From Halarcobacter bivalviorum (GTDB lineage Bacteria > Campylobacterota > Campylobacteria > Campylobacterales > Arcobacteraceae): a stretch of DNA of 64,000 nucleotides. Positions 4,749 through 31,381 of the stretch are shown here, piece after piece. The stretch lies in contig NZ_CP031217.1 of assembly GCF_003346815.1 (NCBI RefSeq), positions 2,418,001-2,482,000 of the forward strand. The letters are read 5' to 3'. Both the position numbers and the translations under genes were made by a program. The first letter of the stretch is position 1, and each line of letters starts with the position of its first letter. The notes beneath the pieces were generated by a model. The model did no database searches, was not told the DNA's origin, and saw only the letters and a program-made list of their open reading frames with translations.

Positions 4749-5435
4749 ATGAATAATTTAAAAAAACTAACGATATTATATCTAGAAGATGAAGAGCTTA
4801 TTAGAACCAATGTTACGGAAATATTAGGATATATGTTTGAAGAAGTTTATGAAGCTACAAACTATGAAGAAGCTTTAAATAAATTTACAAATAATAAGGT
4901 TGATATTATTTTGAGTGACATAAGTATGTCAGGAAAAAATGGCTTAGACTTTGTAAAACATATAAGAGAAACTAATAAAAGTATTCCTGTAATTTTATTA
5001 ACTGCACATACAGATACAAAATATTTATTAGAAGCTGTAAAGTTAAATCTTGTAGACTATCTAAGAAAACCCGTTAATTTTAAAGAGCTAAAAGACACAT
5101 TGAAAAAAGCTGCTGAAAATTGTAGTGTTGAATCAGATTTAATTATCGAATTTGAGGAAGAAATAATATATAATTTTACAAAAAAAGAGTTAACAAAAGA
5201 AAATATTTTAATAGATATTACAAAAAAAGAGATGCTTCTTTTAGATTTTTTATTTAAAAATAAAGATCGAACTGTTTCAAAAGATGAGATTCAAGTAAAT
5301 GTATGGGAAGATGATTTTGAAGCAACTGATTCTGCTTTTAAATCACTAATGAATAAACTAAGAAAAAAAATAGGAAAAAATTCAATAAAAAATATTTCTA
5401 AAGTGGGTTATAAATTTAATAATATGAGTTCTTAA
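4749..5435 (+). CDS. OmpR-family response regulator
   Basis: Two-component regulator of 228 residues. The receiver (about 6-120) has an acidic pair at Asp14/Glu15, phospho-acceptor Asp57 (ILSDISM), Thr85 and Lys107. The C-terminal winged-helix domain (about 145-226) ends in the typical LMNKLRKKIG...VGYKF pattern. The ATG has no clear SD and follows a TATAAT box by about 35 bases. The gene is divergent from the secretion operon and convergent with a kinase gene, overlapping it by 4 bases. With direct-repeat elements in front of itself and of the adhesin, it is the best candidate to control adhesin production and export; this is inference. Confidence 0.92.
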   Translation: MNNLKKLTILYLEDEELIRTNVTEILGYMFEEVYEATNYEEALNKFTNNKVDIILSDISMSGKNGLDFVKHIRETNKSIPVILLTAHTDTKYLLEAVKLNLVDYLRKPVNFKELKDTLKKAAENCSVESDLIIEFEEEIIYNFTKKELTKENILIDITKKEMLLLDFLFKNKDRTVSKDEIQVNVWEDDFEATDSAFKSLMNKLRKKIGKNSIKNISKVGYKFNNMSS

Positions 5436-13154: not shown

Positions 13155-13859
13155 TTATGAAATAAAATCTTTAATTCTTTCATAATCTTCTATATAATCT
13201 ACCTCTGCCCAAAATACTCCAGCAATGTCATTTACATAAACTTTTTTACCATCTTCTACAGTTCTATAGATGATATCTTCCCACCAACAACTATAATCTT
13301 CATTAGAAACAGCATCTATAACATTTTGCTTAAATACTTGTAGATCACTTTTATTTAAAATTCCAATTCCTACATATTCACCTGTAGTTTCATTATTTGT
13401 TAAATGTTTTCCATATTTTTTTAGAAATTCACCTTCCCAATTAAATCTATAGTCTGCATCTTCAATTCTTGTACTATCACTTAACATTAGAGGTGATCTT
13501 TTTTCAGCCAATAAAATATCTAATACTTTCTCTTCCATAAAAACATCACCATTCATAATCATAATATCATCATCTGGAGTTAAAAAATCTCTTGCAAACC
13601 AAACTGATGAGATCGAATTTGCTACTCTAAAAAAAGGATTGAAATATCTAACATAAGATAAACCTTCTAAGGCTTGATGAATATATCTTTCTTGATATCC
13701 AGTTACAATAGCTATCTCTTTTATCCCTTTCTTTTTTAATAATTCCATGGTGTATCTAATTAAAGGTTGGCCATTTATATCTACACAACATTTTGGTTGT
13801 CCTTGAAGATGCCTACTAATTCTACTTCCAACTCCAGCTGCCATTATTAAAACTTTCAT
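13155..13859 (-). CDS. Sugar-phosphate/phosphonate-type nucleotidyltransferase (LicC/PntC-like)
   Basis: Nucleotidyltransferase of 234 residues with a Rossmann-like fold. The N-terminal MAAGVGSR (6-13) is the nucleotide loop, Lys23 in GQPKCC is the usual catalytic lysine, and NGDV at 103-106 supplies a metal-binding Asp. It resembles phosphocholine or 2-aminoethylphosphonate cytidylyltransferases more than hexose-1-phosphate enzymes. The neighbouring PhnW-like aminotransferase ends one base upstream, which favours an aminoalkyl phosphate or phosphonate as substrate. No PEP mutase or CDP-alcohol transferase is visible in the window, so the exact substrate is open. Last gene of the 11-gene operon. 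Confidence 0.8.
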   Translation of the reverse strand: MKVLIMAAGVGSRISRHLQGQPKCCVDINGQPLIRYTMELLKKKGIKEIAIVTGYQERYIHQALEGLSYVRYFNPFFRVANSISSVWFARDFLTPDDDIMIMNGDVFMEEKVLDILLAEKRSPLMLSDSTRIEDADYRFNWEGEFLKKYGKHLTNNETTGEYVGIGILNKSDLQVFKQNVIDAVSNEDYSCWWEDIIYRTVEDGKKVYVNDIAGVFWAEVDYIEDYERIKDFIS

Positions 13860-13860
13860 T

Positions 13861-14943
13861 TTATTCTCCCCTGCTTATTTTATAGTAATCATAAAGTGCA
13901 TCAATTAATATATCTACATACTCTTTTGTCATATCTCCCATATGTGAAACTCTAAAAACCTTATCTTTAAGTTCTCCACCATTTGGAGTAAGTACACAGT
14001 TATATCTTCTTTCTAAGTCTCTTACTATATCACTTGCACTTTTTTCATCAAGTGGACTTAAAGTTGTCATGGCATTTGGCATGAAATTACTATATATTTC
14101 TAAAGGTAATTTCTCAATTTCTTTTCTAAAATACTCTGCTATGTCTCTTGCTTTATTATTATGAAAAGAGATTCCTTCTTTCTTTATATTTAATAATCTG
14201 TCATGTAATTGTAAAATTATTAATACTGCGGGAGTAAAAGGAGTTTGTCCTCTCTCTCCATCTTTTATATAACTGTTAAAATCAAAATATAACTGATGTT
14301 TAGGGTTAATCTTTTTTATTGCCATAGGAGATAAAACTACCATAGTTAAACCAGGAGGTAAAGCTAGTCCTTTATGTGAACTTGTAATTACCACATCTAT
14401 ATTTTGTTCTTGCATATCAAGTTTATCTGTGATAAACATACTTATAGCATCAACAATATTTAAAATATTATATTTTTTTGTAAACTTACCTATACTTTCT
14501 AAATCATATAATATTCCTACACTTGTTTCATGAGCATTTACTAATAAAGCTGTTGCATCCTTATAAACTTCTAACTCTTCAGTATTTTTTAGGTTATTAT
14601 CATTTATTTGATGATTATAATTCTTTATATTATGAATATTACAAATATCTACAAATCTTTGTCCAAATCCTCCACCATTTATTACTAATGCTTTATCTTC
14701 TGTATTTAAAAGATTTTGTATAGAAGCTTCCATTCCTGCTGTTCCAGAAGCTGTTAAAAAAAGTACTCTACTTCCTTTTGGTGCATTTAATATTTCAAGT
14801 AAGATTTTTTCACATTCAAATACTATTTGAGAAAACTCTTCATTTCTAAAATAAGGAGTTTGGATTGAACCAAGTTTTAATGTACTTTCATACATCTTAA
14901 CTGGACCAGGAGTAAAAATATATTTATTATATAAATTAAACAT
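13861..14943 (-). CDS. Class V aminotransferase (2-aminoethylphosphonate transaminase-like)
   Basis: PLP enzyme of about 360 residues similar to PhnW and alanine-glyoxylate aminotransferases. An N-terminal FTPGPV motif, the phosphate-binding SGTAGMEAS, an Asp in NIVDAISMF for the pyridine nitrogen, and Lys191 in SSHKGLALPPG as the Schiff-base lysine are all present. I chose the ATG at 14943 because AAAGG lies eight bases before it; a TTG at 14958 would add five residues. Paired with the nucleotidyltransferase one base downstream, it could supply or consume an aminoalkyl phosphonate; a different amino donor or acceptor is also possible. Confidence 0.82.
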   Translation of the reverse strand: MFNLYNKYIFTPGPVKMYESTLKLGSIQTPYFRNEEFSQIVFECEKILLEILNAPKGSRVLFLTASGTAGMEASIQNLLNTEDKALVINGGGFGQRFVDICNIHNIKNYNHQINDNNLKNTEELEVYKDATALLVNAHETSVGILYDLESIGKFTKKYNILNIVDAISMFITDKLDMQEQNIDVVITSSHKGLALPPGLTMVVLSPMAIKKINPKHQLYFDFNSYIKDGERGQTPFTPAVLIILQLHDRLLNIKKEGISFHNNKARDIAEYFRKEIEKLPLEIYSNFMPNAMTTLSPLDEKSASDIVRDLERRYNCVLTPNGGELKDKVFRVSHMGDMTKEYVDILIDALYDYYKISRGE

Positions 14944-14973
14944 TTTAGGCCTTTGCAATAATATAATTAATTA

Positions 14974-16371
14974 TCAAATTTCTTTTTTGATAGTATAGAG
15001 TAATTTATCTGCATTATTTATAAAGTAAAAAGTACTTTTGTCATAAAAAAATTTATTAAGATTTTTTTCATTATTATCAAATTGAAAAACTAAATCCCAA
15101 TAAAATTTATTTTTTGTTCTTAAAACTTTTATTCTTTCATATGAAGATGTCTTATCTTTAACCATTAAATAAATATAGTCATTTTCTATAAAAAAATCTA
15201 TAGGTATATAATTATCATTTAATGAAAGTTCTTCGAAAGTTGAGATATTTTTATTAGTAAAATAAACTCCAAAAGAGTTTTCTTTTATATATTCACCAAT
15301 ATATAAATATCCATTTTTATACATCACTGCTTTTGTGATTGTTTTTTTCTTATTGTAATATAAAGACTTAGAAGGGAAAATTTTGCTTTCTTTGATTTGT
15401 TTTTCTTTGATTATTTTATTAATTTTAAAAATAAAATCTTCATCATAACTTTTGCTAAATTTGATAAAGTCTATTCTTCTTAGTTCTTTTGTTAAATTTT
15501 TTTTATTATTCTCATATTCCATATAATTTAAATATTTATCTATTAAAGTTACAAAATCTAAAGCTTCTTTTTCATTCATTCTTAAAGCTAAGATAGTCTC
15601 TTTTATAGCATTTAAAATAAATATATTATTATTAAAAGATTTTTGCTGTTTTTCTGTCCATCTTTGTTTAGGATAGAAATAAAACTCTTCTGCTTTATTA
15701 TCATATAAAGCTAATTTTTCTAATACTTTTAAAAAAAACAACTGTGTATTTTCAAAACTATTATCATATAAATAAGCTAATCTATTCCAAAAGTATTTAG
15801 AAGAATAGGTGCTATTAAGTAAGATTTCTAATTCTACAATACTCTGAGGAAGTTTTCTTTTATAGTTTCCTTTCTCATTTTTTGCAATTTTTTCAATCCA
15901 TCTGGCATGTCCTTCCATAACCCAACGATTATTAAAATAAGTATAACCATAGTGAACTAAGTGAAAAAATTCATGAAGAGGTGTCAATGTATTTGGAATT
16001 AAATCTGTTGATAACTTTATACTTATTGATTTGTTTTTTTTATTTAAAATATCACTTGCAGCACCTCTTGCTTTTAAATTTATTAAATAAATATCAATAT
16101 ACTTAGCCCCATGGAATCTTTTTTGAGTTAAAGGGCTTTTAAAATGAAGCTTTTTATTTATCAAATCAGAAGCAAATCTTAATTTTTCATAGATACTTTC
16201 TACATAATCAGGTACTTGATTATTATTTTTATCTTCTTGATTTTTTAAAGGTAATGCATTTTTACCTGTTAAAGTATAATAAATTCTAAATTCTTCTTTT
16301 ATATAAACATTCTCATTCTTTGCAAATAAAAAATAAAAAGGAAGAAAAACTAAAACTATTAATTTAATCAT
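14974..16371 (-). CDS. Secreted gluzincin-like metallopeptidase with propeller-like tail
   Basis: Exported protein of 465 residues with a signal peptide ending near Ala17. A calcium-loop-like EDKNNNQVPDYV (46-57) and HEFFH at 133-137 with Glu153 in WVMEGHARW form a zinc site typical of HExxH...E peptidases of the MXAN_6640-like group. From about residue 345 the chain matches the C-terminal parts of the two propeller-like proteins encoded upstream (for example GYLYIGEYI and FGVYFTN). The same peptidase module opens the 1057-residue fusion in this operon. The gene overlaps its upstream neighbour by 8 bases and has an AAAGG SD. Proteolytic activity is inferred from the motif; the substrate is unknown. 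Confidence 0.72.
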   Translation of the reverse strand: MIKLIVLVFLPFYFLFAKNENVYIKEEFRIYYTLTGKNALPLKNQEDKNNNQVPDYVESIYEKLRFASDLINKKLHFKSPLTQKRFHGAKYIDIYLINLKARGAASDILNKKNKSISIKLSTDLIPNTLTPLHEFFHLVHYGYTYFNNRWVMEGHARWIEKIAKNEKGNYKRKLPQSIVELEILLNSTYSSKYFWNRLAYLYDNSFENTQLFFLKVLEKLALYDNKAEEFYFYPKQRWTEKQQKSFNNNIFILNAIKETILALRMNEKEALDFVTLIDKYLNYMEYENNKKNLTKELRRIDFIKFSKSYDEDFIFKINKIIKEKQIKESKIFPSKSLYYNKKKTITKAVMYKNGYLYIGEYIKENSFGVYFTNKNISTFEELSLNDNYIPIDFFIENDYIYLMVKDKTSSYERIKVLRTKNKFYWDLVFQFDNNEKNLNKFFYDKSTFYFINNADKLLYTIKKEI

Positions 16372-17509
16372 TACAAACCTTTAAAATATCTCCAGTTTCT
16401 ATTTTCAATTCTTTTAAATCCCATTTTTTAGGGTTTTTTATCTCACTCCCCATTCCAAAATAAAAACAATTATCATACTTTTCAAAGCTTCTTGCAAAAG
16501 TTTTATATGAAAAACTTAAAATCTTGTTTATTTTATAATTATCATTTTTAAACTCAAAAGAATAAATGATATTTTTATTTTTGTCACTTACTAATACATA
16601 TACTTTATTTTCTCTAACAATTATATCTCTAGGTATTTCATTTTTTTTTAACTCTACTTTATTTATTAGTAAATCATTTGAAATAAAATATAAACCAAAA
16701 GGTAAATTTTGATGATCATTATGAGTATAAGCTCCAATATACAAATTACCACTTTTTAATATTGTAGTTTTAATGATTTTAATCATTTTTTTTTCAAGTT
16801 TTGTATTAGGAAACATTCTATTCACATTTAAATCAAATCTTGAGGAAAAAATCTCTTTTTCTTTAATCCATTGAGTGATACTAAGTTCAGTAGGTACTTG
16901 TTTTTTAAAAGTTTTTATTGCAAAAAGCTTATCCTCTAAGAGCATAAAACTATAAACTCTTCCTCTACCATGTAATATCTCTTTCCACGTAGAAGCTGCT
17001 AAATCACTTATTAAAACAGCACTATTTCCTAATAATCCTATTGAAGTAAAAAGTTGTTCATCTTTTTCTACAAGATCATAGACATGTAAAGCTTTAGGAA
17101 GTGTTCTATATTTTTCCCATTTATCTTTCTCTTTTTTATAAATATTTCCATAAGTCCATTTTTGTGTTGCATCATGCCCTGGAACATATAATCTATTATT
17201 ATAAACTTTGAAAATATCTATTTGTTCTTCTGCTACTTCATACTCATACTCAAACTTTTCTGTTTTTGGATTAAAACTTATAATTGTCACTCTTCCAGCA
17301 TTTTGTGCAGGACCTATATTGCTACTATTTCCAGCACCTAAATATATTTTTCCTTCAAAGAATTGCATATCCCAAATATTTCTTGCATATATATTTTCAT
17401 TATCTTTATAATATTTAGAGTACGGATTTCCTAAAAGTAAAACTTCTTTTGCATTTAAGTTTATAAAAAAGATTAATATAAAAAAGAAAAATAGTTTTTT
17501 TTTAATCAT
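16364..17509 (-). CDS. Secreted beta-propeller-like protein, paralogue 1
   Basis: Exported protein of 381 residues; signal peptide ends at about Ala21. The body is built of short beta-rich repeats with alternating aromatic and glycine turns (NIWDMQFFEGKIYLGAGNSS, then RLYVPGHDA and KALHVYDLV), as in beta-propellers. It is clearly paralogous to the product of 17998-19179, sharing the order GAGNS, PGHDA, LHVYDL, GRVYSFM, YIGAY, TFARSFE, FYFGMGS and TGDILK. No catalytic motif is recognised. It overlaps the P-loop kinase gene by 8 bases upstream and the peptidase gene by 8 bases downstream. It may bind or sense a ligand made or exported by this operon; function unknown. Confidence 0.7.
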   Translation of the reverse strand: MIKKKLFFFFILIFFINLNAKEVLLLGNPYSKYYKDNENIYARNIWDMQFFEGKIYLGAGNSSNIGPAQNAGRVTIISFNPKTEKFEYEYEVAEEQIDIFKVYNNRLYVPGHDATQKWTYGNIYKKEKDKWEKYRTLPKALHVYDLVEKDEQLFTSIGLLGNSAVLISDLAASTWKEILHGRGRVYSFMLLEDKLFAIKTFKKQVPTELSITQWIKEKEIFSSRFDLNVNRMFPNTKLEKKMIKIIKTTILKSGNLYIGAYTHNDHQNLPFGLYFISNDLLINKVELKKNEIPRDIIVRENKVYVLVSDKNKNIIYSFEFKNDNYKINKILSFSYKTFARSFEKYDNCFYFGMGSEIKNPKKWDLKELKIETGDILKVCND

Positions 17510-17996
17510 TATTTATCTCTTCATAAATTCTTTTTGCTAACTCTTCAGAAGAACTTTTTTCACTATCTACAGAAAAATCATAATCCATATCTTTGTGTAC
17601 TCTTTCAAATTGATATTTAACCAATTTAAAGTCATTTCGTCCTCTTTTTTTCTCTCTTTCTAAAAGGGTTTTTAAAGATAAGTGTACACCAATATATTTT
17701 GCAGAAGGAAGTTTTCTTTTGGCATCTTGCTTTAAACTACTTGTTTCTAAAACATTATCTATAATTACATTAAAGCCCATGTCATACCATACTTTTGCAG
17801 TACGATGCAAGCCTTTTACTTCTTCTTTATATAAAGGCCATTTTTCAGTTGAATATTTTTTACATAATACCTTATGGAAATTATCCAAACTTAGATAAAT
17901 TGTAGGTTCACTAAAATAATCTACTAAAAAAGAGCAAATTGAAGTTTTTCCACTAGAGCTAACTCCATTTAGGTAGCAGATTATATTTTTTTTCAT
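17502..17996 (-). CDS. P-loop kinase/phosphotransferase, CPT-like
   Basis: Cytoplasmic P-loop protein of 164 residues resembling the chloramphenicol phosphotransferase-like family. Walker A GVSSSGKTS is at 11-19. A conserved Asp in YLSLDNFH, a central NVIIDNVL strand and a lid-like LLEREKKRGRND follow. Members phosphorylate small hydroxylated molecules; resistance to an antibiotic or a tailoring step on the operon product are both possible. It sits between the two propeller paralogues, one base after the first and overlapping the second by 8 bases, so it is an integral operon member. Substrate unknown. Confidence 0.72.
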   Translation of the reverse strand: MKKNIICYLNGVSSSGKTSICSFLVDYFSEPTIYLSLDNFHKVLCKKYSTEKWPLYKEEVKGLHRTAKVWYDMGFNVIIDNVLETSSLKQDAKRKLPSAKYIGVHLSLKTLLEREKKRGRNDFKLVKYQFERVHKDMDYDFSVDSEKSSSEELAKRIYEEINND

Positions 17997-17997
17997 T

Positions 17998-19179: not shown

Positions 19180-19183
19180 TTGT

Positions 19184-21571
19184 TTACCTTTTATCTAAAT
19201 TTGCTTTATATAGTTTATGCTTTTTAACAGGACAGAAAATTCTCTTTGAGTGATCTAAGCCCTTACTTAAACCTGGTCCATCATTTACTAATAGATAATC
19301 CTTATTTATTTGTAAGAATTTAAATTTTAAATAAGATTGAACTCTTGGTAAAGAAAAATCATTTTTGCCAATAAACATATTTGCTATATCATCACTCATT
19401 TTTCCTGAAAATCCAAAGGCTACTACCTTTTTATTATTTAATACTACGTATCCTTCTAAATCTTCATTATCAAAAAGATTATAATATAAAATTGCATTTC
19501 GAGTATATTTCTCATCACTTAATCGTCCATACTTAGAACGTTGAATATTAATCCATTTATCAAAAATTTCTAAGCAAGACTTCTTATATTCTAAAGAATA
19601 TGGTAAAAATTCTATCTTTTCATTTTTTGCAATACTATTTAAATCTTGTCGTAGGTTTCTAAATTTTTTTCCACTAAGATTTTCATAGATAGAAGGGTCA
19701 TATAAATAGTCAAAAGTTTTATACTCAAAAGTGATTTTTTTCTCCATCTCTTTTAGAATAGAAACGTCTTCTTTATCTAACCAAATAATTGAAGCTTTCT
19801 TATAACCTTTATATTTAAAAATTCTTTCAAAGGCACTATTTAATTTCTCTTTTAATAATGGTAAGGTAGGTAAATATAAAGACAATTTTGGAGGATAGGT
19901 TCTATTAAACTTATCTAATAAAAATAAATTTAAAAAATCTTTTTCTTTTTCTATTAGAATTTCTCTACTTGAAGATAAAGACCAAAAATAAATAAAAGGG
20001 AAATAGTATATCCAAGCTCTCTTTTTTTCTAAGTTTATATACTTTTTAAAATCTTTGATATCATTTACTTCTAAAGTTCTTAGTTGTCGTAAAGACTCAT
20101 TTTTAGATCTCATTCTTGGTGTACTTTTAATTGTTTCTAATTTAAAACCTTCTAAATTTTTTATATATTCTATAAAAGCAGGAAGATTACTTTCAAAGAT
20201 ACCTTTTACACACAATAAGTCATTCTCTTTAATTTCATCCAGAACCTCATCTTTTATATTTTCAAAATCTATACTATGATTTTTCCAAATTGATTTATCC
20301 TCTAAGACATTGATATGTTCACTAAATTTTTCAACACTATATAAAACATCTAAGCCAGAAGCCTTGATTAACGTTTGAAAATATTTAGAATCAATTAATT
20401 GCATCTCTCCATCTTTGTAATCTACAAATTCTGAAGTCAATAAAATTTTTCTATTTATTTCTTCATTTGAAATTAACTTTAATGTTTTAAAAAAACTTAT
20501 ATATCCTTCTATTCCACCTCTATTACTTTGGTCATATAAAAAAAATGATTTATTTTTATAAGAAGCTTTATAAAAAACACCACTACTTTTTAAATTTTCT
20601 ATATTATAAAAACTATTTGCTGCTTCATGAATATCAAATCCTAAATGATAAGTACAAAGAAGAACTCCTAAAGAGTTTGTTGGAGCATATTCTTCTAAAA
20701 AAGGCACTCTATAAGCTACTACTTTATTTTCAATTTTTGCAATTACATCCCAACCAAAATTTTTAAATTTTTTATATAAGATATATGCATTATTTGAAGG
20801 TTTTGTACCATATGTTTTAATTGTGAGATTTTTATATTTACTAAGTTCTTTTTGAATTTTAGAATAATGTTTATCATCTGCATTTACTAAAAATTTACTA
20901 TTTTCATCTAATGAAGTAGCAATTGATAATTTATTTTCAATTATCTTTTCAATTGTTTTAAATCTTTCAATATGCTCATGTCCAATAGATGTTAATACAG
21001 CAATATTGGGTTTTATTAGTTTACTTCGTCTTTGAATTTTACTTTTATTAGCAACAGGGATTTCCATTAAAAAGGCTTTATTCTGTTTTTTTAATGAAGC
21101 TAAATTACAATAATTACTTGCAGTATAATTTGCACTATTTAATCTTGTATAAGTAGAAGCTTGATTTTTAATTACATGATATAAATGTGATTTAAAGCCT
21201 GTTTTTCCATAACTTCCAGTTATTAATACTTTTTTAGCTTCTGTTTTTAAACTTGCAAATTCAGCTAGTTTCTTTAAAGCTTGATAGGTATTTTCAACTC
21301 TCAGTATAGGAATTTTTGTATTAATCTCTAAATCATTTTTTACAATTAAAGCACTTACTCCTTTTTTTATAGCTCTAGTAATTTTATTTTCATTATTTCT
21401 ATAAGCTTTAGGGTTGTGCCAATTATCAGAGATAACAACAAAAGCATTACCTTCTTTTAAATAATGATAAGTATGATGAAACTCATTTATTTTTAGATTA
21501 TCATCATAATTTTCCCAATAGCCATCAACTATTTCTGCTATTTCTTTAGGAGTAAAAAATAGTTGTTCCAT
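19184..21571 (-). CDS. Mur ligase-like / DUF2156 (GNAT-fold) fusion protein
   Basis: About 795 residues. The N-terminal half follows MurF order: an N-terminal uridine-domain-like part, then the ATP-binding centre with P-loop GSYGKTG, NSANYTASN, a TSIGHEH metal site and a C-terminal ligase domain with YDQSNRGG. About residues 490-795 resemble the DUF2156/phosphatidylglycerol lysyltransferase C-terminal fold, ending VNDGPGLSKGLDHSKR. Together they could activate a carboxylate, join it to an amine, and transfer an aminoacyl group. I prefer the ATG at 21571, one base after the upstream stop; a GTG at 21589 would overlap the upstream gene by 17 bases. Substrates unknown. Confidence 0.75.
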   Translation of the reverse strand: MEQLFFTPKEIAEIVDGYWENYDDNLKINEFHHTYHYLKEGNAFVVISDNWHNPKAYRNNENKITRAIKKGVSALIVKNDLEINTKIPILRVENTYQALKKLAEFASLKTEAKKVLITGSYGKTGFKSHLYHVIKNQASTYTRLNSANYTASNYCNLASLKKQNKAFLMEIPVANKSKIQRRSKLIKPNIAVLTSIGHEHIERFKTIEKIIENKLSIATSLDENSKFLVNADDKHYSKIQKELSKYKNLTIKTYGTKPSNNAYILYKKFKNFGWDVIAKIENKVVAYRVPFLEEYAPTNSLGVLLCTYHLGFDIHEAANSFYNIENLKSSGVFYKASYKNKSFFLYDQSNRGGIEGYISFFKTLKLISNEEINRKILLTSEFVDYKDGEMQLIDSKYFQTLIKASGLDVLYSVEKFSEHINVLEDKSIWKNHSIDFENIKDEVLDEIKENDLLCVKGIFESNLPAFIEYIKNLEGFKLETIKSTPRMRSKNESLRQLRTLEVNDIKDFKKYINLEKKRAWIYYFPFIYFWSLSSSREILIEKEKDFLNLFLLDKFNRTYPPKLSLYLPTLPLLKEKLNSAFERIFKYKGYKKASIIWLDKEDVSILKEMEKKITFEYKTFDYLYDPSIYENLSGKKFRNLRQDLNSIAKNEKIEFLPYSLEYKKSCLEIFDKWINIQRSKYGRLSDEKYTRNAILYYNLFDNEDLEGYVVLNNKKVVAFGFSGKMSDDIANMFIGKNDFSLPRVQSYLKFKFLQINKDYLLVNDGPGLSKGLDHSKRIFCPVKKHKLYKANLDKR

Positions 21572-21572
21572 A

Positions 21573-24500
21573 TCAAATATCCAGCTCACTTATATATCTG
21601 TCAATATATTTTTCAAAATAAGTAGGGAATCCTGAAAGGGTATAACCAACTCTTGGATTAATCTCAAAAATTTTAGGAATATTATTTTCTATTTTAAAAT
21701 TAATACTACACTGGCAATAATCATCATTACTACTTAAATAAGATACTATTTCTTCAAAAAGCTCTAAAAAAGGAGTTTCACAATATTCTACTTTAATAGT
21801 TTCTTTTTTTTCTGCTTGTAAAACATAAAAATCTTTTTCCACTTTTTTACTAAAAGTAAAATCTTCAATAATCTTCCCTTTTTTCATAAAAATAGTAGTT
21901 GCATACTCTACCTTACTAGGTAAATATTCAGATATTATTAGATTCTTATCTTTAAAAGTAATCTCATCTTTTGAGTAAGCTATAAAAATACCTCTTCCTG
22001 CTCCACCTGAAATAGTTTTTACAATACAAGGATAGATAACTTCATTTTCATTAGAATAATATTTTGGAACATATTGCTCATATCCTTTTTGAAGCATTAA
22101 ATCATAAAACAGTTTTTTATCGACAAAGTGTTTTAATGTTTTTTGAGTATTAACTAAAAATTTCAAACCTTTTTCTTTTAAAAGTTTTTCATTTTTAGCA
22201 ATTGCTTTTTGAGCAGAATAGTTATTTCCAAATAAGATATTGATTTTATTATCTAGTGCAAAATCAATTACTTTTTTTATATCACTAAAACTTGTATGAT
22301 AAGCTTCTATAAAAGAACATTTTTTTAATGTACTTTGCCACTTATCTGCAAAGAGTATTTTATTTTTACTCTTTTTATGTTTCTCTATTCCTAAATGTTT
22401 TAAAACCATATCTTCCAATAATCTTTTTTCATGTAAATAAACACTCACATAATGATCACAATTTTTATAAGAAAAAAGTTTTATTCTTTTATCATCTAAA
22501 TATAAAGCATGAACTTCATCCAAAGGGACACTTTCAGAATAGTGAATTTCAATTTTATTATTAATATTACTATTTTTATAAAGTTCTTTTATATTTAAAT
22601 ATTTTGTATATTTTTCATTTACTTTACTTAACTCTTTATTCCATCTTTTATCAGAAAACTTTTTTCTTGTTTTATTATCAATAAAAGTTTGAGGAGAGAA
22701 GGCTAAAACATTAGTTACATTTAAAAGTTTTCCTGCAATTAAAGCCATATATCCACCCATTGAAGAGCCAATACAAAGTATTTTTTTATAATTGCCTTTT
22801 TTTATAAAATAACTTAATAGATTTACTATTTCATCAATACTATTTGCAATTACATTTGAGCCATTGTGATACCAAGAATCTGAATTATCTAAAATAAAAA
22901 TCTTATTTGTAATTACTTCATTTGTAATAAAAGGATAACGAGAATTAAATACTCCACCTAAATGTCCTCCATATCCAGAAAAAGAGATTACTAAAATATC
23001 ACTTTTCATTTCAAAATCAAAAAGATGAGTTAGCTTTTCATTATGAGTTGTTCTACCAAAATATTCATAATTATGTTTTATTTTTTCAACAAATTCATAA
23101 GTTGGAATGAAACATTTATTTTTAGTATCATAAAGTTCTAAAATATTTTTATGAAAATTAGAATTGCTATTTGGTTTTATTTTATACTGATTAATATCAT
23201 CCGTATAAATAATTAAATATCTTTCATAAGTAAGAATATTTTCTAAAGCTTTTATATCTTTTAAATTGGGGTTTCCATTTAATAAAATAGTTTTGCTTTG
23301 AGAATTCCAAACTGTTGTTTTTAAAAATTCAAGATTTTCAAGACCTTTTAAAGAAACTAGTTTATTATGTGCAACAGATAATAAACCATAAACTTTTTTC
23401 AAATTATTTAATTCTTCTAAACTTTTTATTGAATTAGAAGATAAAGAAAGACTAGCAACAACTGTTGTTAAATACTCTAATCCTTTTAAAGAAGTTAAGT
23501 TATTATTATGTAAATATAAAGAAGATCCCGTATGTTCTAAACCTCTTAAAAAAGCAATACTTCTTAATTTCTTATTTGAAGTAATCTTAATATAACCATC
23601 TATTCTTTTTATTTTTAAAAAAAATTTACTTAGAGCATATATATTTTCTAAACTTTCATTATGTGTTATTTCAATATTTTTTACATATTCTAAAGAATGA
23701 AAACCATTAATTTCTTCAAGAACTTTATTATCACTAATCTTTAAAGTCCCAGATATCTGTTTTATTCTATTGAATCCATCTAATATTTTTAAATTAGTAT
23801 CAGAGATAATTAAATCTCCTTCAATCATATGAAGATTATCATAACTATTGTAGTGATAGGTTTCCACTTCTAAATTATGTAAGACATTTTTTTTACTTTC
23901 TCTTATTATATAAAGTTCGATTACTTCTAAAAAAACTCTTATCTCTTTTTTATTTTTTAAATCTACATTCTCAAAAGTTTTTAATAATGCATTTAAAACA
24001 TAAAGATTATTTATTATTGATTTTTTCTGTATTTTTTCTATTTTTAATTCAGCTAATAATTCTTTCTCTTCTAGTTCACAATTTAAAAGAAAATTCTTAA
24101 TAAAAGAAGATAAATCATCAACATAAAAAAATAGTTTTCTAAAAAAATATTCTGCATCATGAGCTCTTAATAAAAGAGAATCTAACTCTTCTATTGTTTG
24201 AGGTAATATCTCATCTTTCATCTGTCGTTTATGAATTAAATTTTGACTCCATCTAGCTAAGCCTTCCATAAACCACATATTATTAAAATTACAGTAGTTA
24301 TATTGAAAAACATGAAATAATTCATGTATTGGAGTTGCTGTATCTTCTATCAAATCATTATGAATTTGGATTTTAACAGCCTTACCTTTCATATCTTCTT
24401 CTAAAAAGTATTCACTATTATCTACAAGTTCTGAAGCTACCAAACCTTTTTGTTTAGGTATATCTACTATTAATATATCAATAAACTCAGCACCTTTATC

Positions 24501-24746
24501 AAAATAAATCCCTTCTTTTAGTGGATTTCTTAACTTAAGTTTTTTTGTATATATTTCATTTGCTTGGAAGAAAAGTTTAAAAATATTTATTATGTAATCA
24601 GGAATATCTTTTTTATAGCTAAATTTTAAGTTAGCAGGTGTTTTATCATCTTTTGAAAGATTATAAAAAATTCTAAAAGGGTTACTTATAAAACAGTATT
24701 CATACTCTTTTTTTACAAAACTAATATTTTTAAAATTAACTTTCAT
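21573..24746 (-). CDS. Peptidase-like / LRR / alpha-beta hydrolase / ATP-grasp fusion protein
   Basis: 1057 residues without a signal peptide. Residues 1-290 carry a gluzincin site, HELFH at 141-145 and Glu161 in FMEGLARW, matching the secreted peptidase of this operon. Residues about 300-510 are leucine-rich or receptor-L-like repeats (GLEYL, NNLTSLKG, NKLVSLKGLE). Residues about 580-790 look like an alpha/beta hydrolase with nucleophile Ser662 in GSSMGG. Residues about 800-1057 look like an ATP-grasp ligase, with a lysine in PCIVKTISGGAGRG and the metal ligands in FEINPRVG. ATP-grasp and Mur-ligase chemistry side by side recalls cyanophycin-type synthesis. Start is supported by GAAAGG; the next gene follows at once. 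Confidence 0.72.
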   Translation of the reverse strand: MKVNFKNISFVKKEYEYCFISNPFRIFYNLSKDDKTPANLKFSYKKDIPDYIINIFKLFFQANEIYTKKLKLRNPLKEGIYFDKGAEFIDILIVDIPKQKGLVASELVDNSEYFLEEDMKGKAVKIQIHNDLIEDTATPIHELFHVFQYNYCNFNNMWFMEGLARWSQNLIHKRQMKDEILPQTIEELDSLLLRAHDAEYFFRKLFFYVDDLSSFIKNFLLNCELEEKELLAELKIEKIQKKSIINNLYVLNALLKTFENVDLKNKKEIRVFLEVIELYIIRESKKNVLHNLEVETYHYNSYDNLHMIEGDLIISDTNLKILDGFNRIKQISGTLKISDNKVLEEINGFHSLEYVKNIEITHNESLENIYALSKFFLKIKRIDGYIKITSNKKLRSIAFLRGLEHTGSSLYLHNNNLTSLKGLEYLTTVVASLSLSSNSIKSLEELNNLKKVYGLLSVAHNKLVSLKGLENLEFLKTTVWNSQSKTILLNGNPNLKDIKALENILTYERYLIIYTDDINQYKIKPNSNSNFHKNILELYDTKNKCFIPTYEFVEKIKHNYEYFGRTTHNEKLTHLFDFEMKSDILVISFSGYGGHLGGVFNSRYPFITNEVITNKIFILDNSDSWYHNGSNVIANSIDEIVNLLSYFIKKGNYKKILCIGSSMGGYMALIAGKLLNVTNVLAFSPQTFIDNKTRKKFSDKRWNKELSKVNEKYTKYLNIKELYKNSNINNKIEIHYSESVPLDEVHALYLDDKRIKLFSYKNCDHYVSVYLHEKRLLEDMVLKHLGIEKHKKSKNKILFADKWQSTLKKCSFIEAYHTSFSDIKKVIDFALDNKINILFGNNYSAQKAIAKNEKLLKEKGLKFLVNTQKTLKHFVDKKLFYDLMLQKGYEQYVPKYYSNENEVIYPCIVKTISGGAGRGIFIAYSKDEITFKDKNLIISEYLPSKVEYATTIFMKKGKIIEDFTFSKKVEKDFYVLQAEKKETIKVEYCETPFLELFEEIVSYLSSNDDYCQCSINFKIENNIPKIFEINPRVGYTLSGFPTYFEKYIDRYISELDI

Positions 24747-27700
24747 TTAGAACCTTTCTAATAAAGGCTCTAAAATATCTTTATATAATTCACTTTTTTT
24801 AAAATCTGTTGCTGTTATATAATTGTTTGCATTAATAAAATCAATAAATTTACCATAGTCAAAACTTACCCATCCTAAGCCCCAAGTTCTGCCTTCAAAT
24901 TTTTTATCAAAATTTAAACTATTTATAAATTTTTTTAAGGAAATTCTATCGTTTTCATTCATCTTTGAAACTTTATATTTCCCATTCTCTTTTTCATATT
25001 TTACAAATCCAATATGAAGATTTAAAGTTGCTACTTCAATATGTAAAAGATACTCTTTATTTCCAAAGTAATAGAAACTTCCAAAAAGCTGTTTTTTAGG
25101 TAATTCTACTTTTTTATCTAAATTATTAAACCACATTTCACAATATTCTTCATTATAAACGTATGATTTCATACCTGTACTTTTTATATCTTCATTTACA
25201 TTTACTAGCTTTTTTGAAATAAAATATTTATCTATAGTTGTAAAAAATTCTAATAATAAAGTTTTTCTAAATTCTGTAAAATTTTTATACTTTGAAAGAG
25301 ATTCTTTAAAACTATTTGCAGTTAATTCATATTTATATAATAAATCATTTATTTTTATTGTTGAATTCTCTAATTCAAACATTGTTACTAAAGATTTATA
25401 TTCATTTATTTTTTTATCTGTTAATTTATAATCATTTATTCTATAATCAAAGATACTTCTATCTTTCATTTTTAAAATTCTATCTGATACTCTTCCTAGA
25501 TATAAATAAGCACTTCCTATTATAAATAATAAATCACCACCTTTTATATCTAAATATAAGCTTTTCGCAAGAACATCAATATCTTCTTCATGAGAAACTA
25601 AAATATTTTTATTTTCTAAATTTTCATGAACATAATTCATAAAGTTACCTGTTGTATATAACCTATCAATATTACTTTCATTAATTAGTTTTGCTAACTC
25701 AGAATGAGACTCTTGAGTCCATGAAGAATCTTTTTTAATTGAAATCCCACCAACTAAAGCAATTATCTTCCCTGGTACTTTAAAGTTCTTTAAATCATTA
25801 AAAGCTGATTTCATTCCATGAATTCCACCTCTTCTACTTTGGTCATAAAATAAAACATCTCCTGATTTTTTAGAAATTTTTATTACTCTTCCCATAGTTT
25901 CAAATGGTTCAATTCCTTCAAAATCTTTAGCAGCTTTTAAAACATCAAATCCCATCTCTTTTACGGCTAATAAAATCCCAACACTTGCTAATGGTGCATG
26001 TTGTTGTATCATAGGAACAAAATATTTAACTTTTATTCCATCAATATTAGCTTCCACTTTCCAACCAATATTTTTTGAATCAAAAGTTTGTTTTAAAAGT
26101 TGTGCCTTATCACTCTTTGTAATACCATAACTTATAATTTCAACATTTGGTTTTCTTTTATAAATTGCATTTAATAATTTTGGATAATGTTCTATATTTG
26201 AATTTACAATACATTTTCCACCTTCTTTTAAACCTTCAACAACAGAAGATTTTGCAATCATAATATTTTCAATAGTTTTGTGCATATCCATATGGTTTGG
26301 ACCAATATTTGTAAAAAAGCATAAATTAGGATTTACCATCATTGCTCTTTCAACTCTATATGCTTCATCACTTCCCACTGAAACCTCATTGATTTCAACT
26401 TTATCATCTACTTCTAAATTGATTAAAGATCTTAAAACAGGTACTTCTGTATTTGCACTATTTAATACAGCATGAGTTTTTATTTGTTTATTTAAAATAT
26501 GATGGAATTGTACTTTTGCACCAGTTTTCCCCTCTGTTCCTGTTACTAAAACAGTATAAGGATTATGCTCTTGTCTTACTTTTATTGCACACTGTTTAAA
26601 AGCTTCAAAACAATCATCAACTAATAAAACTGGTAAATGCTCAACATACTTTAAATATTTTTTATCATCAATAACAACTGCTTTTATATCTTTTTTAAGA
26701 ACTTTTTTAAGCTCATGCATAGGATCTTTTTTCTCTTTTATCCAGTCTCTTATTGCCATTGTGAAATAGATATTTCCACTATAATAAGTTCCGTAAGTTC
26801 CCACACCTGTAAAAGTCATACTATCATTAATATCTGTTAGCCAAACACCTCTTGTATATTCAACTAATTTAGTAGGAGATAAAAAAATCTCTTTAAAAGA
26901 ATCTATTTTTTCTTTTAAAACTAAAGACATTTCCACAAACTTTTCTCTATTTTCAGGTTCCATATCTAATATTGAATAATTAAATAAAGAGATTTCAGGA
27001 TTTTTTATTAGTTCTAAAGTTCTTTTCATCCCTTTTTTTACTTCTTCTATCCATTGGTCATGAGATACTTCATTATCTAGATTAGGATTATCTAATAATG
27101 CTGGAGGAAAACCATTAAACATCAAAAGATGAGATAAAGTTACACAAGAGAAAGTTCTACTATTACCATCAGGGAAAGGGTGTAATAATTCAAGTTCTCT
27201 TGGTACTAAAGATATAACTCTTAATTTTTCTTCATCAGTTTTTGCTTTTTTTATATTTTTATTATATCTATCAACTATCTCTTCCATTTTTGAAACCATT
27301 AACATTTGAACTGAATGTTTAGCTTCATAAAACTCATGTAAACTTAGTTTCCCTTCTAAAGCTTCTACTTGTTTCTTATCTAGATTAGGGTACCAGTTTC
27401 GATAATTAATTTTTCCATCTTTTAACATAAAGTCATAAACTTCATCTACATTTAACTCATCTGCTGTTTTACCCCATTGTTTTGAGTTAAAAATTGCAGT
27501 ACCATCTCCTTTTCTCAACTCAAAAACTTCTACTAAATGCTCATAAGTTGTTGATTTAGCAAAAAAAGGCATCCCAGAATTTAAATATCTTATATCTCCT
27601 GGACTTGATTTTAAATTTGTTGTTTCTACACTTAACATACAAATCTTATGAAGCTCTCTTAAATATGTAGCTTTTAAACCATTTGAAATATCAAAGTTGT

Positions 27701-27860
27701 CAAGCATATGACAAAAACCATTTAATAAAGCAGGAACACTTCCTCTTTCACCACCTTCATATCCAACCCAGCCATTATATTTTTTTTGAAATCTTCCATC
27801 AACAAAAAATCTCCAAAATTGTGATATATCAAATTGTTTTAAATATTTAATTCCAGACAT
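24747..27860 (-). CDS. Fic-like domain / Mur ligase fusion protein
   Basis: 1037 residues. The N-terminal third has a Fic-type core with HPFPDGNSR at 227-235; canonical Fic is HPFxxGNGR, so the second glycine is serine. Residues about 430-800 are a Mur ligase: P-loop GTEGKTG (441-447), LNSANTEVP, NIGPNHMDMHK as a metal and substrate site, and FYDQSRRGGIHG, all parallel to the 795-residue Mur protein of the operon. Residues 800-1037 are unrecognised. No D-alanine or UDP-MurNAc signature is evident. It may AMPylate or otherwise modify a partner and ligate an amine to a carboxylate. Start has an AAGGGA SD. Confidence 0.74.
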   Translation of the reverse strand: MSGIKYLKQFDISQFWRFFVDGRFQKKYNGWVGYEGGERGSVPALLNGFCHMLDNFDISNGLKATYLRELHKICMLSVETTNLKSSPGDIRYLNSGMPFFAKSTTYEHLVEVFELRKGDGTAIFNSKQWGKTADELNVDEVYDFMLKDGKINYRNWYPNLDKKQVEALEGKLSLHEFYEAKHSVQMLMVSKMEEIVDRYNKNIKKAKTDEEKLRVISLVPRELELLHPFPDGNSRTFSCVTLSHLLMFNGFPPALLDNPNLDNEVSHDQWIEEVKKGMKRTLELIKNPEISLFNYSILDMEPENREKFVEMSLVLKEKIDSFKEIFLSPTKLVEYTRGVWLTDINDSMTFTGVGTYGTYYSGNIYFTMAIRDWIKEKKDPMHELKKVLKKDIKAVVIDDKKYLKYVEHLPVLLVDDCFEAFKQCAIKVRQEHNPYTVLVTGTEGKTGAKVQFHHILNKQIKTHAVLNSANTEVPVLRSLINLEVDDKVEINEVSVGSDEAYRVERAMMVNPNLCFFTNIGPNHMDMHKTIENIMIAKSSVVEGLKEGGKCIVNSNIEHYPKLLNAIYKRKPNVEIISYGITKSDKAQLLKQTFDSKNIGWKVEANIDGIKVKYFVPMIQQHAPLASVGILLAVKEMGFDVLKAAKDFEGIEPFETMGRVIKISKKSGDVLFYDQSRRGGIHGMKSAFNDLKNFKVPGKIIALVGGISIKKDSSWTQESHSELAKLINESNIDRLYTTGNFMNYVHENLENKNILVSHEEDIDVLAKSLYLDIKGGDLLFIIGSAYLYLGRVSDRILKMKDRSIFDYRINDYKLTDKKINEYKSLVTMFELENSTIKINDLLYKYELTANSFKESLSKYKNFTEFRKTLLLEFFTTIDKYFISKKLVNVNEDIKSTGMKSYVYNEEYCEMWFNNLDKKVELPKKQLFGSFYYFGNKEYLLHIEVATLNLHIGFVKYEKENGKYKVSKMNENDRISLKKFINSLNFDKKFEGRTWGLGWVSFDYGKFIDFINANNYITATDFKKSELYKDILEPLLERF

Positions 27861-27873
27861 ATTAATACTTCCC

Positions 27874-30084: not shown

Positions 30085-30103
30085 ATCTAGCCTCTAAATT
30101 TAA

Positions 30104-31381
30104 CTATTTACTTTCAATTCTAAATTCAACTCTTCTTGATAACTCTTTATTTTCTGTTCCATCTTCATTAAGAATTAGTTGACTTGAAGATTTTCCTTTT
30201 GCAACAAAATTTTCATTTATAAAAGTTTCATTTTCAATAATAGATGAATCAAGTAATGTTTTTAAATATTCTAATACAGCATCTGCTCTTTGCTGAGATA
30301 AAACCATATTTCTTTTAAATTTTTCTTCTTCACTAGTTACACTATTAAAAGCGGAAGAAGTATGACCTTCTATATAAACTTTTTTTATTGAAGTTTTATA
30401 TTGAATTAATGCCTCTACATACCTTGGGAAAAAGTTTGCTAAGATAGTTTTAAATTCCTCTTTTAAATCATTACTTCCTCTTTCAAATAATAAAGAAGGA
30501 TTATTAAATCTAAAAGTCAAAGTCTTTTCATCAAAAGTAGCATGCCAGTTATTTAAATCTTTTTCAAACTCTTTTTTTAATAAAGAAGGTAAGCTATTAA
30601 CAGCTTTAATTTCTAATTCTTCTGAAACTAAACCTTTCTCATTCATTGAATTTACAGAAATAGCATCTACTCTATAATATCCATTTAAAAGTTTCTCTTG
30701 AACTTGTGCACACCATCTTTTTCCTAAGATATTTGCCTCAATAACACTTTCACCAGAATCAAAAGAAATTTGTATTCTTTGTACATCTGTATCAAAAACA
30801 TCACCACAAATATTAGGTCTATTATCTGTTAAAACACCATATTCGTCAATTGAGATTTGATTATAAAATTGAACATTTGTAGGTTTCTTAGGAGTAACAA
30901 CTTTCCCTACACATTGTGCTTGAATATTTTTAGAACTTAACAATTTAGCTGTTCTCATATCTGTTGCTTTTACAGCATAATCATAAGCAGAAATACCTTT
31001 TTCATCTTTGATATTTACCTTTGCCCCATTACAAATTAATAACTCAGAAATAAAAGCATAACCATTTCTTGTAGAATCAAGTAATGGTGTATCAAAATAG
31101 TTATCAAAACTATTTACATCTGCACCTTTTGTAATTAACATTTTTGCAATATCATAGTGGTTAAATCTTGCCGCTAAGTGTAATGGTGTGTAACCATATT
31201 CATCTTTTTCTTCTAAGTCAGCATTATTTTCAATTAATTCATTTACTAGTCTTATATCATTTACCCTAATCGCATAGTGTAAATTTTTATTCATTCTTAC
31301 ATCATAATTTCCATTTTTTGATGTACATCCTGTGAAGATACCAATTATAAATATACTTACTATAAATATATATTTAGACAT
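30104..31381 (-). CDS. Ankyrin-repeat OmpA-like lipoprotein
   Basis: 425-residue lipoprotein with a lipobox ending GIFTGC (Cys19). Three to four ankyrin repeats span about 30-150 (such as GYTPLHLAARFNHYDIAKML). A middle region is unassigned. The C-terminal OmpA domain (about 290-425) has the peptidoglycan-binding pattern IEGHTSS...LSQQRADAVLEYL...RRVEFRI. It should sit in the outer membrane facing the periplasm and grip the wall, with the ankyrin part free to bind protein. First gene of the 11-gene operon; the toroid gene begins 19 bases downstream. An AAGGA SD and a TATAAT at 31448-31443 lie upstream. Confidence 0.82.
   Translation of the reverse strand: MSKYIFIVSIFIIGIFTGCTSKNGNYDVRMNKNLHYAIRVNDIRLVNELIENNADLEEKDEYGYTPLHLAARFNHYDIAKMLITKGADVNSFDNYFDTPLLDSTRNGYAFISELLICNGAKVNIKDEKGISAYDYAVKATDMRTAKLLSSKNIQAQCVGKVVTPKKPTNVQFYNQISIDEYGVLTDNRPNICGDVFDTDVQRIQISFDSGESVIEANILGKRWCAQVQEKLLNGYYRVDAISVNSMNEKGLVSEELEIKAVNSLPSLLKKEFEKDLNNWHATFDEKTLTFRFNNPSLLFERGSNDLKEEFKTILANFFPRYVEALIQYKTSIKKVYIEGHTSSAFNSVTSEEEKFKRNMVLSQQRADAVLEYLKTLLDSSIIENETFINENFVAKGKSSSQLILNEDGTENKELSRRVEFRIESK

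What the first reader, a model, noticed from the sequence alone, without database searches (positions are those of the whole stretch)
13155..31381. Compact 11-gene operon that looks like an undescribed ligase-based biosynthetic system
Seen: eleven minus-strand genes in 18.2 kb with gaps of 0-30 bases or short overlaps. They encode two Mur-ligase fusions, an ATP-grasp fusion, a DUF2156-like domain, an aminotransferase, a nucleotidyltransferase, a P-loop kinase, secreted peptidase and propeller proteins, a toroid and an OmpA-type lipoprotein. Known: Mur ligases, ATP-grasp enzymes and DUF2156-type transferases make amide or ester bonds with amino acids; nucleotidyltransferases activate head groups. 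Inference: the operon makes an amino-acid-containing envelope or extracellular product and handles it outside the cytoplasm. I know of no named system with this set.
Basis: partly seen in the sequence, partly recalled or inferred. Interest (0 to 1): 0.85.

Follow-up and report, generated by a model that had tools for sequence, protein, structure and literature searches.

The report
Decoration kit for Asp-Thr repeat adhesin
Eleven genes next to a giant secreted protein with an unbroken run of 740 aspartate-threonine or aspartate-serine pairs look like a dedicated kit that chemically decorates that run, using a relative of an enzyme known to attach phosphocholine to proteins; the chemistry itself has not been tested.

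Summary
The operon is real: eleven minus-strand genes, gaps of 0-19 bases or overlaps of 8-17. One "Mur fusion" begins with a Fic domain related to the phosphocholine transferase AnkX (PDB E 2e-26), with the catalytic motif and three of four published CMP-binding residues. The gene 79 bases downstream is a T1SS-type adhesin with 740 uninterrupted Asp-Thr/Ser dipeptides whose synonymous sites are scrambled.

The toroid tracks such D[ST] arrays: of 397 Campylobacterota genomes, arrays are detected in 10 of 15 toroid-positive and 1 of 382 toroid-negative genomes, that one not a true array. Of ten Methylococcales neighbourhoods fetched, five hold true arrays, each beside a toroid relative.

Fic-Mur with a cytidylyltransferase and a PLP enzyme is one of several kits. 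In one relative the kit holds an aminoethylphosphonate pathway (three enzymes over curated cut-offs), followed by the array adhesin.

Best reading: a cassette that modifies array Thr/Ser with CMP-activated phospho- or phosphono-amine groups, and probably adds amino acids, before type I secretion. The chemistry is inferred. My ten paper searches found no named system with this anatomy.

The parts
30104..31381 (-). ankyrin + OmpA-type protein, probably a lipoprotein, first gene; a relative lies just left of the window in the T1SS operon
   Evidence: Pfam Ank_2 3.6e-32, OmpA 5.7e-9; hydrophobic N-terminus ending ..FTGC (read; simple lipobox pattern not matched); 37% identical copy in L132
27874..30084 (-). 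toroid protein: N-terminal alpha/beta domain + alpha/alpha6 barrel; in the window (1 of 12 aligned) also a Mur C-terminal-like stretch
   Evidence: model pLDDT 69; residues 210-599 match GH76/AGE-type barrels, 6shm Z 27.6, rmsd 2.9, 306 aligned; tracks D[ST] arrays; extension only in window row
24747..27860 (-). Fic-Mur protein: AnkX-like Fic domain (2-333), MurF-like ligase (about 360-790), C-terminal domain (about 803-1037)
   Evidence: PDB 4ber E 2e-26; HPFPDGNSR at 227; D21, R23, Y34 = AnkX D28, R30, Y41; Mur_ligase_M 6.6e-22; CTD model pLDDT 96
21573..24746 (-). cytoplasmic fusion: HExxH metallopeptidase-like, LRR-like (Recep_L), alpha/beta-hydrolase-like (weak) and ATP-grasp domains
19184..21589 (-). 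Mur ligase + LPG_synthase_C (DUF2156/GNAT-type aminoacyl transferase) fusion
   Evidence: Mur_ligase_M 1.6e-24; LPG_synthase_C 5.5e-11
   Evidence: hydrophobic N-terminus; no Pfam family
17502..17996 (-). CPT-like small-molecule kinase, found in 0 of 16 related loci
   Evidence: PF07931 2.6e-24; no tblastn hit at 1e-5
16364..17509 (-). exported protein, paralogue of 17998-19179
   Evidence: hydrophobic N-terminus; both queries hit the same places
14974..16371 (-). exported MXAN_6640-like HExxH metallopeptidase
   Evidence: NF045524 4.7e-17, 63 of 140 bits; HEFFH at 133
13861..14958 (-). class V aminotransferase, PhnW/AepZ-like but far below cut-off
   Evidence: TIGR03301 152 of 360.8 bits; 6pd1 second half 2.1e-19; best PDB 3f0h 1.2e-81
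13155..13859 (-). LicC/PntC-like nucleotidyltransferase (cytidylyltransferase by homology)
   Evidence: 1jyk CTP:phosphocholine cytidylyltransferase 2.2e-14; 6pd1 first half 5.4e-7; present in 17 of 17 Fic-Mur genomes searched
6281..13075 (-). giant adhesin (2264 aa), proposed substrate: N-terminal module, D[ST] array, C-terminal RTX-like part
   Evidence: three GGxGxD motifs read in the printed C-terminus
8090..12529 (-). array: 740 Asp-Thr/Ser dipeptides (661 DT then 79 DS), no interruption
5432..6235 (-). sensor histidine kinase behind the adhesin
2833..4629 (-). T1SS outer-membrane efflux protein
   Evidence: PF02321 1.8e-33
665..2812 (-). T1SS ABC transporter with C39-like domain; a HlyD relative lies just left of the window
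   Evidence: L132

Best explanation
The operon is a cytoplasmic modification kit, with a few exported helpers, for the D[ST] array of the T1SS adhesin encoded directly downstream. The PLP enzyme supplies an amino-alcohol phosphate (a phosphonate in one relative); the LicC/PntC-like enzyme activates it as a CMP conjugate; the AnkX-like Fic domain transfers the phospho- or phosphono-amine group to array Thr/Ser hydroxyls; the linked Mur ligases, ATP-grasp and GNAT domains form amide bonds, on array Asp carboxylates or on the new amines; the toroid, the common denominator, binds or modifies the array in a way not yet known; the product leaves by type I secretion. SHOWN: gene set, homologies, conserved Fic and CMP-site residues, and co-occurrence of toroid with arrays. 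INFERRED: every chemical step, the donor, and that the array is the acceptor. My odds: operon serves the array adhesin 0.75; Fic puts a CMP-derived amine group on Thr/Ser 0.5; ligases act on the same array 0.4.
For: Toroid vs array: 10 of 15 vs 1 of 382 genomes, p 1.4e-15 uncorrected for relatedness; short arrays found by reading raise it to 13 of 15. Fic-Mur vs array: 5 of 6 vs 6 of 391, p 3.4e-8. Among 20 genomes sharing the adhesin N-terminal module, 4 of 4 toroid+ have D[ST] runs close behind it, 0 of 16 toroid-. 14 of 20 Fic-Mur genomes carry arrays at E 1e-6, each confirmed by translation; in 7 of the 14 the array adhesin is beside the kit. Methylococcales: of ten neighbourhoods, five true arrays, each beside toroid or toroid2 (G420, G536, G502, G522, G547). 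Fic motif in 20 of 20 domains and CMP residues in 19 of 19 with that region. Natural swaps: G346 has PepM (423 > 319.6 bits), Ppd (397 > 312.5) and AEP transaminase (387 > 360.8 bits) between Fic-Mur and array adhesin; G411 has a HisC/CobD-like PLP enzyme; G393 has a partial AvrB-family (Fido) match between toroid and array adhesin.
Against: No biochemical data. Arrays occur without Fic-Mur (6 of 391 hits in Campylobacterota, one not a true array; 17 of 175 hits in Methylococcales, at least five true arrays), so Fic-Mur is optional. 6 of 20 Fic-Mur genomes show no array at E 1e-6; all six are draft MAGs by title. In 7 of the 14 array-bearing Fic-Mur genomes the array is only on another contig than the kit; in G006 the kit's contig is 323 kb long and no array lies within the roughly 16 kb looked at on either side. 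The window genome lacks PEP mutase, so its head group is unknown. AnkX R44 is Gly here. The Fic-Mur C-terminal domain is also fused to the aminotransferase, which fits a complex as well as array binding. Negative genomes rest on few scored candidates (2 per genome).
Confidence: 0.6

Rival explanations
1. The operon makes a separate amino-acid-containing envelope or capsule polymer (poly-glutamate or cyanophycin-like) and the adhesin is only a neighbour, perhaps displaying it.
For: Mur ligases; PGA_cap (CapA-type) proteins in two array loci, L097 and L045; ATP-grasp; exported helpers.
Against: The toroid-array pair occurs in G304 and G321 (complete genomes) and G373 with no match to the window's ligases in the roughly 20 kb fetched (in G373 the toroid lies near a contig start). 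No CapB/CapC model among the NCBIfam hits of the two Mur proteins. The PGA_cap protein of L045 also matches the lasso-peptide epimerase MslH, below its cut-off (85 of 700 bits).
Confidence: 0.15
2. The array is modified, but mainly on Asp by Mur/ATP-grasp ligation (a ribosomally templated cyanophycin-like chain); the Fic domain is regulatory or acts elsewhere.
For: Two Mur ligases and a third Mur-like stretch in the window operon; in G522 a toroid2-GNAT fusion and a Mur ligase lie beside a D[ST]/D-Ala array with no Fic match.
Against: Fic-Mur and the cytidylyltransferase occur together in 17 of 17 genomes, which suits stoichiometric supply; an AvrB-family match takes the place in G393.
Confidence: 0.15
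3. The array is an unmodified acidic spacer and the operon controls secretion or retention of the adhesin (as phosphocholination controls Rab1).
For: OmpA-type protein, metallopeptidase and T1SS genes are retention-type functions.
Against: Does not explain supply genes (PepM-Ppd-AEPT in G346) or why the link is to D[ST] arrays and not to the shared N-terminal module.
Confidence: 0.08
4. Anti-phage defence island.
For: Fic region weakly matches PADLOC PDC-S04 (2.1e-8).
Against: Of ten proteins scanned the only other hits are generic PLP similarity; the recurring partners are adhesin and T1SS genes.
Confidence: 0.02

Closest known systems
AnkX phosphocholine transferase (Legionella effector)
   Same: N-terminal Fic + CMP-binding region align over about 330 residues; HPFxDxNxR; D28/R30/Y41 kept (criterion from PMC4454073, passages seen)
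   Different: Fused to a Mur ligase and a C-terminal domain without a clear known fold, not to ankyrin repeats; sits in a biosynthetic operon; target predicted to be the cell's own adhesin
Pnt/Lic tailoring (LicC or PntC + transferase)
   Same: nucleotidyltransferase and PLP enzyme adjacent, matching the two halves of the fusion 6pd1; AEP set in G346
   Different: Neighbours reported there are LicD-like phosphotransferases or glycosyltransferases (PMC6697681, passages seen; no word beginning with Fic in its main text); here a Fic-Mur protein and, proposed, a protein target
Cyanophycin synthetase / MurF-type ligases
   Same: Mur and ATP-grasp domains; proposed acceptor rich in Asp
   Different: MurF scores far below cut-off (142 and 132 of 288.6 bits); proposed backbone is ribosomal
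Glycosylated Ser-Asp repeat proteins of staphylococci (recalled)
   Same: long D/S repeat decorated by neighbouring enzymes
   Different: Gram-positive, sugar donors, no Fic, Mur or toroid (all recalled, not tested)
LapA/BapA-type T1SS adhesins
   Same: ABC-C39, HlyD and OEP neighbours, C-terminal RTX-like repeats
   Different: No D[ST] run follows the same N-terminal module in 21 of 25 copies within the flank seen; here a long one does

Membership tests
AnkX-type transferase | Fic catalytic motif HPFx[D/E]xNxR | tested here: met
   20 of 20 homologues
AnkX-type transferase | at least 3 of 4 CMP-binding residues D28, R30, Y41, R44 plus Fic (criterion of PMC4454073) | tested here: met
   three kept in 19 of 19 with that region; R44 position Gly in 15 of 19
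AnkX-type transferase | NCBIfam AnkX equivalog cut-off (1400 bits) | tested here: not met
   145 bits, N-terminal part only
AnkX-type transferase | phosphocholine transfer from CDP-choline | not testable with these tools
   needs enzyme assay
Phosphonate tailoring (Pnt) cluster | PEP mutase in the genome | tested here: not met
   0 of 17 Fic-Mur genomes over cut-off, window included; met in G346, which was not among the 17 (motif EDKxxxxxNS)
Pnt/Lic tailoring | LicC/PntC-like nucleotidyltransferase | tested here: met
   superfamily level: 1jyk 2.2e-14; CTP use untested
MurF | curated MurF score | tested here: not met
   142 and 132 bits vs 288.6
T1SS giant adhesin | ABC/HlyD/OEP genes nearby | tested here: met
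T1SS giant adhesin (LapA type) | LapG cleavage and LapD/LapG genes | not tested
   not searched
GH76 / AGE barrel enzymes (toroid) | alpha/alpha6 fold | tested here: met
   Z 27.6 to 6shm, rmsd 2.9, 306 aligned; model pLDDT 69
GH76 | catalytic Asp pair | not tested
   sequence identity 8-12% to GH76 rows; residues not mapped

The most novel reading that the evidence does not exclude
A giant, RiPP-like secreted polymer: a ribosomal (Asp-Thr/Ser)n backbone in which hydroxyls carry phospho- or phosphono-amine groups placed by AnkX- or AvrB-like Fido enzymes, and carboxylates or amines carry amino acids placed by Mur/ATP-grasp/GNAT ligases. It would be a genetically encoded zwitterionic brush with swappable chemistry, served by a new toroid enzyme family; AnkX-like effectors may derive from such bacterial self-modification enzymes.
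Probability: 0.3. Interest if true: 0.95.

Novelty: categorically new. Interest (0 to 1): 0.86.

Why it matters
If right, it adds a kind of protein modification: hundreds of repeats in one secreted protein decorated by a cassette whose chemistry is swapped between relatives (phosphonate, amino-alcohol phosphate, Fido variants). It gives a bacterial self-modification context for an enzyme type known from injected effectors, a protein destination for phosphonates, and a predicted enzyme family (the toroid) whose substrate is named and testable. Each part has known relatives; what is new is the pairing of toroid, swappable kits and D[ST] arrays.

Tried and rejected
Phosphonate chemistry in the window itself: rejected, no PEP mutase over cut-off in 17 of 17 genomes (weak hits in four genomes, the window's among them, are probably methylisocitrate-lyase-like, not checked further).

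AMMECR1-like N-terminus of the toroid: my hunch by eye; a profile search of the PDB gave 0 hits; dropped. Absence from a fold list is not used as proof of novelty: the Fic-Mur C-terminal domain had no Foldseek hit at E 1e-3 and best Z 6.3.

Fic-Mur replication in the order of G011 (Methylobacter; called Methylococcales here): only 1 of 176 genomes has the full protein, two more match its Mur part only, so no power. The array query there hit 18 of 176, which at first looked like evidence against; of the 17 besides G011 I fetched neighbourhoods of 10. Five have true D[ST] arrays beside toroid or toroid2. G487 is a DADADS repeat at a contig end with no toroid in the stretch; G518, G493, G464 and G511 are mixes such as DV/DI/DT. 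G495 and G542 show D[ST] runs of 28 and 32 residues in total and their neighbours were not fetched. The other five (G445, G447, G448, G498, G507) were not examined.

G186 (array hit in a toroid-negative genome): the stretch holds no D[ST] run of four or more dipeptides. G305 and G311 (toroid without array) are drafts; G305's contig ends 142 bases behind the nucleotidyltransferase and G311's within a gene directly behind the toroid.

Defence. Function from the toroid fold: such barrels host many chemistries, so none is claimed. An error of mine mended on re-check: one of 25 module copies (G375) was judged on the wrong frame; one search reads all six frames of all 25 and gives the same counts.

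Paper searches showed, among the titles listed (only the best-ranked of each), no description of this gene set or of enzymes acting on D[ST] arrays in T1SS adhesins; the library lacks most subscription journals and preprints, so this is not proof of absence.
Full report
1. THE OBSERVATION. Eleven minus-strand ORFs fill 13155-31381 with gaps of 0-19 bases or overlaps of 8-17 bases. Two additions change the reading. First, the protein at 24747-27860 is not just a Mur fusion: residues 2-333 align with AnkX, the phosphocholine transferase, over its Fic and CMP-binding parts (E 2e-26; NCBIfam AnkX model 2.4e-42, far below its full-length cut-off). Second, the next gene downstream, 79 bases on, is a 2264-residue adhesin (6281-13075) with T1SS genes behind it.

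2. THE ARRAY. Residues 183-1662 of the adhesin are 740 consecutive Asp-Thr or Asp-Ser dipeptides (661 DT, then 79 DS), with no exception. The DNA is not a simple repeat: Asp codons split 387/353, Thr codons 314/239/108, 12 hexamers occur, and neighbouring units are identical in 8.3% of cases against 15.9% expected. So the alternation looks held by selection on the protein, with mixed codons. A genome of the same genus (G411) has 742 DT units at the same place with its own codon mix.

3. CONSERVATION OF THE KIT. A scan with Fic-Mur gave 16 loci, by record title Sulfurimonas (5), Arcobacter, Campylobacteraceae, Methylococcaceae (2), Methylobacter, Oceanospirillum, a gammaproteobacterium, Alcaligenaceae, Gallionellaceae, Geobacteraceae and Desulfobulbus. 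In the fetched stretches, many cut by contig ends, the aminotransferase is found in 13 of 16 and the nucleotidyltransferase in 12 of 16; the latter is in 17 of 17 genomes. A toroid (10 of 16) or a related toroid2, fused in front of Fic-Mur in L014, L015 and L016 and separate in L017, is in 14 of 16. The CPT-like kinase is in 0 of 16. In an even draw of 397 genomes of the window's phylum, Fic-Mur is in 6. I call the phylum Campylobacterota because G202 carries the same 322,821-base contig length as the Sulfurimonas record of L010.

4. LINK TO ARRAYS. A 100-residue (DT)n query hits 14 of 20 Fic-Mur genomes at E 1e-6 or better (the 21st genome, G393, has no Fic-Mur and reached only 0.004). All 14 were confirmed as D[ST] arrays by translation. 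In 7 the array adhesin is beside the kit: window, L006, L036 (contig ends in DTDTD), L043 (convergent), L045, L047, and L015 with (DS)n; in the other 7 (G001, G006, G008, G009, G010, G012, G015) it is only on another contig. In 397 phylum genomes the query hits 11: 5 of 6 Fic-Mur genomes and 6 of 391 others. In five of those six others the array adhesin lies within about 8 kb of a toroid (47-74% identical) and near T1SS genes, without Fic-Mur; the sixth, G186, is not a D[ST] array. Conversely the toroid is in 15 of 397; 10 were array hits, three more (G207, G376, G393) have short arrays beside it, two are drafts ending at the cluster. Fisher p is 1.4e-15 for toroid and 3.4e-8 for Fic-Mur. These assume independent genomes, while the toroid genomes fall in four genera, so they overstate the case; and short arrays in toroid-negative genomes would have escaped the query.

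5. AN INTERNAL CONTROL. The adhesin's N-terminal module occurs in 20 of 397 genomes, 25 copies. D[ST] runs of five or more dipeptides follow in 4 copies, all in toroid-positive genomes (window, G411, G346; 12 dipeptides in G393); the other 21 copies show none in the flank held, in any frame. Hence the link is to the array, not to the adhesin type.

6. SECOND PHYLUM. In the order of G011 (Methylococcales), full Fic-Mur is in 1 of 176 genomes but the array query hits 18 of 176. Of ten neighbourhoods fetched, five hold true D[ST] arrays and all five have a toroid (59-60% identical; G420, G536, G502) or toroid2 (57-59%; G522, G547) beside them; the other five are different D-X repeats. Seven hits were not followed to their neighbours. 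In G522 a toroid2-GNAT fusion, a Mur ligase and a metallopeptidase relative sit next to the array.

7. WHAT THE FIC DOMAIN PROBABLY DOES. The motif HPFxDxNxR is intact in 20 of 20 Fic domains, and D21, R23 and Y34 (AnkX D28, R30, Y41) in 19 of 19 with that region; the fourth position is Gly in 15 of 19. A published rule accepts three of four as AnkX type (PMC4454073, passages). The nucleotidyltransferase's best solved relative is the CTP:phosphocholine enzyme LicC, and it and the aminotransferase match the two halves of the fusion 6pd1, presumably the PntC-AEPT protein described in PMC6697681. The supply genes vary between relatives: in G346 PepM, Ppd, a nucleotidyltransferase and AEP transaminase lie between the Fic-Mur protein and the array adhesin, PepM with its diagnostic motif (motif from PMC6697681, passages); in G411 a HisC/CobD-like PLP enzyme, below those models' cut-offs, takes the aminotransferase's place. 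The window genome has no PEP mutase, so an amino-alcohol phosphate is the likelier group there (inference; such routes are known from Campylobacter capsules, recalled). In G393 a 195-residue protein matching the C-terminal third of the AvrB family, another Fido group, lies between toroid and array adhesin (below the NCBIfam cut-off); AvrB is reported to rhamnosylate its target (PMC10866546, title and start of abstract).

8. THE REST OF THE KIT. By simple hydropathy, Fic-Mur, murGNAT, the ATP-grasp fusion, toroid, kinase, PLP enzyme and nucleotidyltransferase lack export signals, while the metallopeptidase, both putative propellers and the OmpA-type protein have hydrophobic N-termini. So modification would precede export and the exported proteins would act on the product. 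The Fic-Mur C-terminal domain has a confident model without a clear PDB match and recurs fused to the aminotransferase (L005, L010, L011) and to a radical SAM/SPASM enzyme (L006), which suggests a shared docking module. CapA/MslH-like proteins occur in two array loci. The toroid barrel resembles GH76/AGE enzymes; its reaction is unknown.

9. JUDGEMENT. Ordinary explanations fail on one point each: a free polymer does not explain toroid-array coupling where no ligase was found; an unmodified spacer does not explain the supply genes. I give 0.75 that the operon serves the array adhesin, 0.6 to the combined core model, 0.3 to the boldest form. It works like AnkX plus Pnt/Lic tailoring but is filed as a member of neither, since defining features were tested and not met (AnkX cut-off; PEP mutase in the window).

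Noticed in passing
window 8090-12529: Synonymous codons are shuffled so that neighbouring units are identical about half as often as expected; this may protect the array from slippage. ACC is absent here but present in G411's array.
   Followed up: partly
window 8071-12531 (-) and 8565-12605 (+): Long ORFs in other frames of the repeat (VSVS.., ILIQTQ..) are by-products, not genes.
   Followed up: no
L124:11789-12376: Partial AvrB/XopAH-family match in a genome of the window's genus, between toroid and array adhesin.
   Followed up: partly
L036:11811-18588: A second, split version of the kit in G004: separate Mur ligases, a double ATP-grasp protein and a stand-alone AnkX-like Fic (28% identical), just before the adhesin start.
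   Followed up: partly
L009:7201-10845 and L014:18787-21492: LRR-like proteins fused to a PPDK_N domain, reminiscent of small-molecule phosphorylating enzymes.
   Followed up: no
L152:2-982 and L136: The G522 array mixes Asp-Ser with long Asp-Ala stretches, so not every unit need carry a hydroxyl.
   Followed up: no
L132:7985-9319: Second ankyrin-OmpA gene behind HlyD, left of the window, 37% identical to 30104-31381.
   Followed up: no
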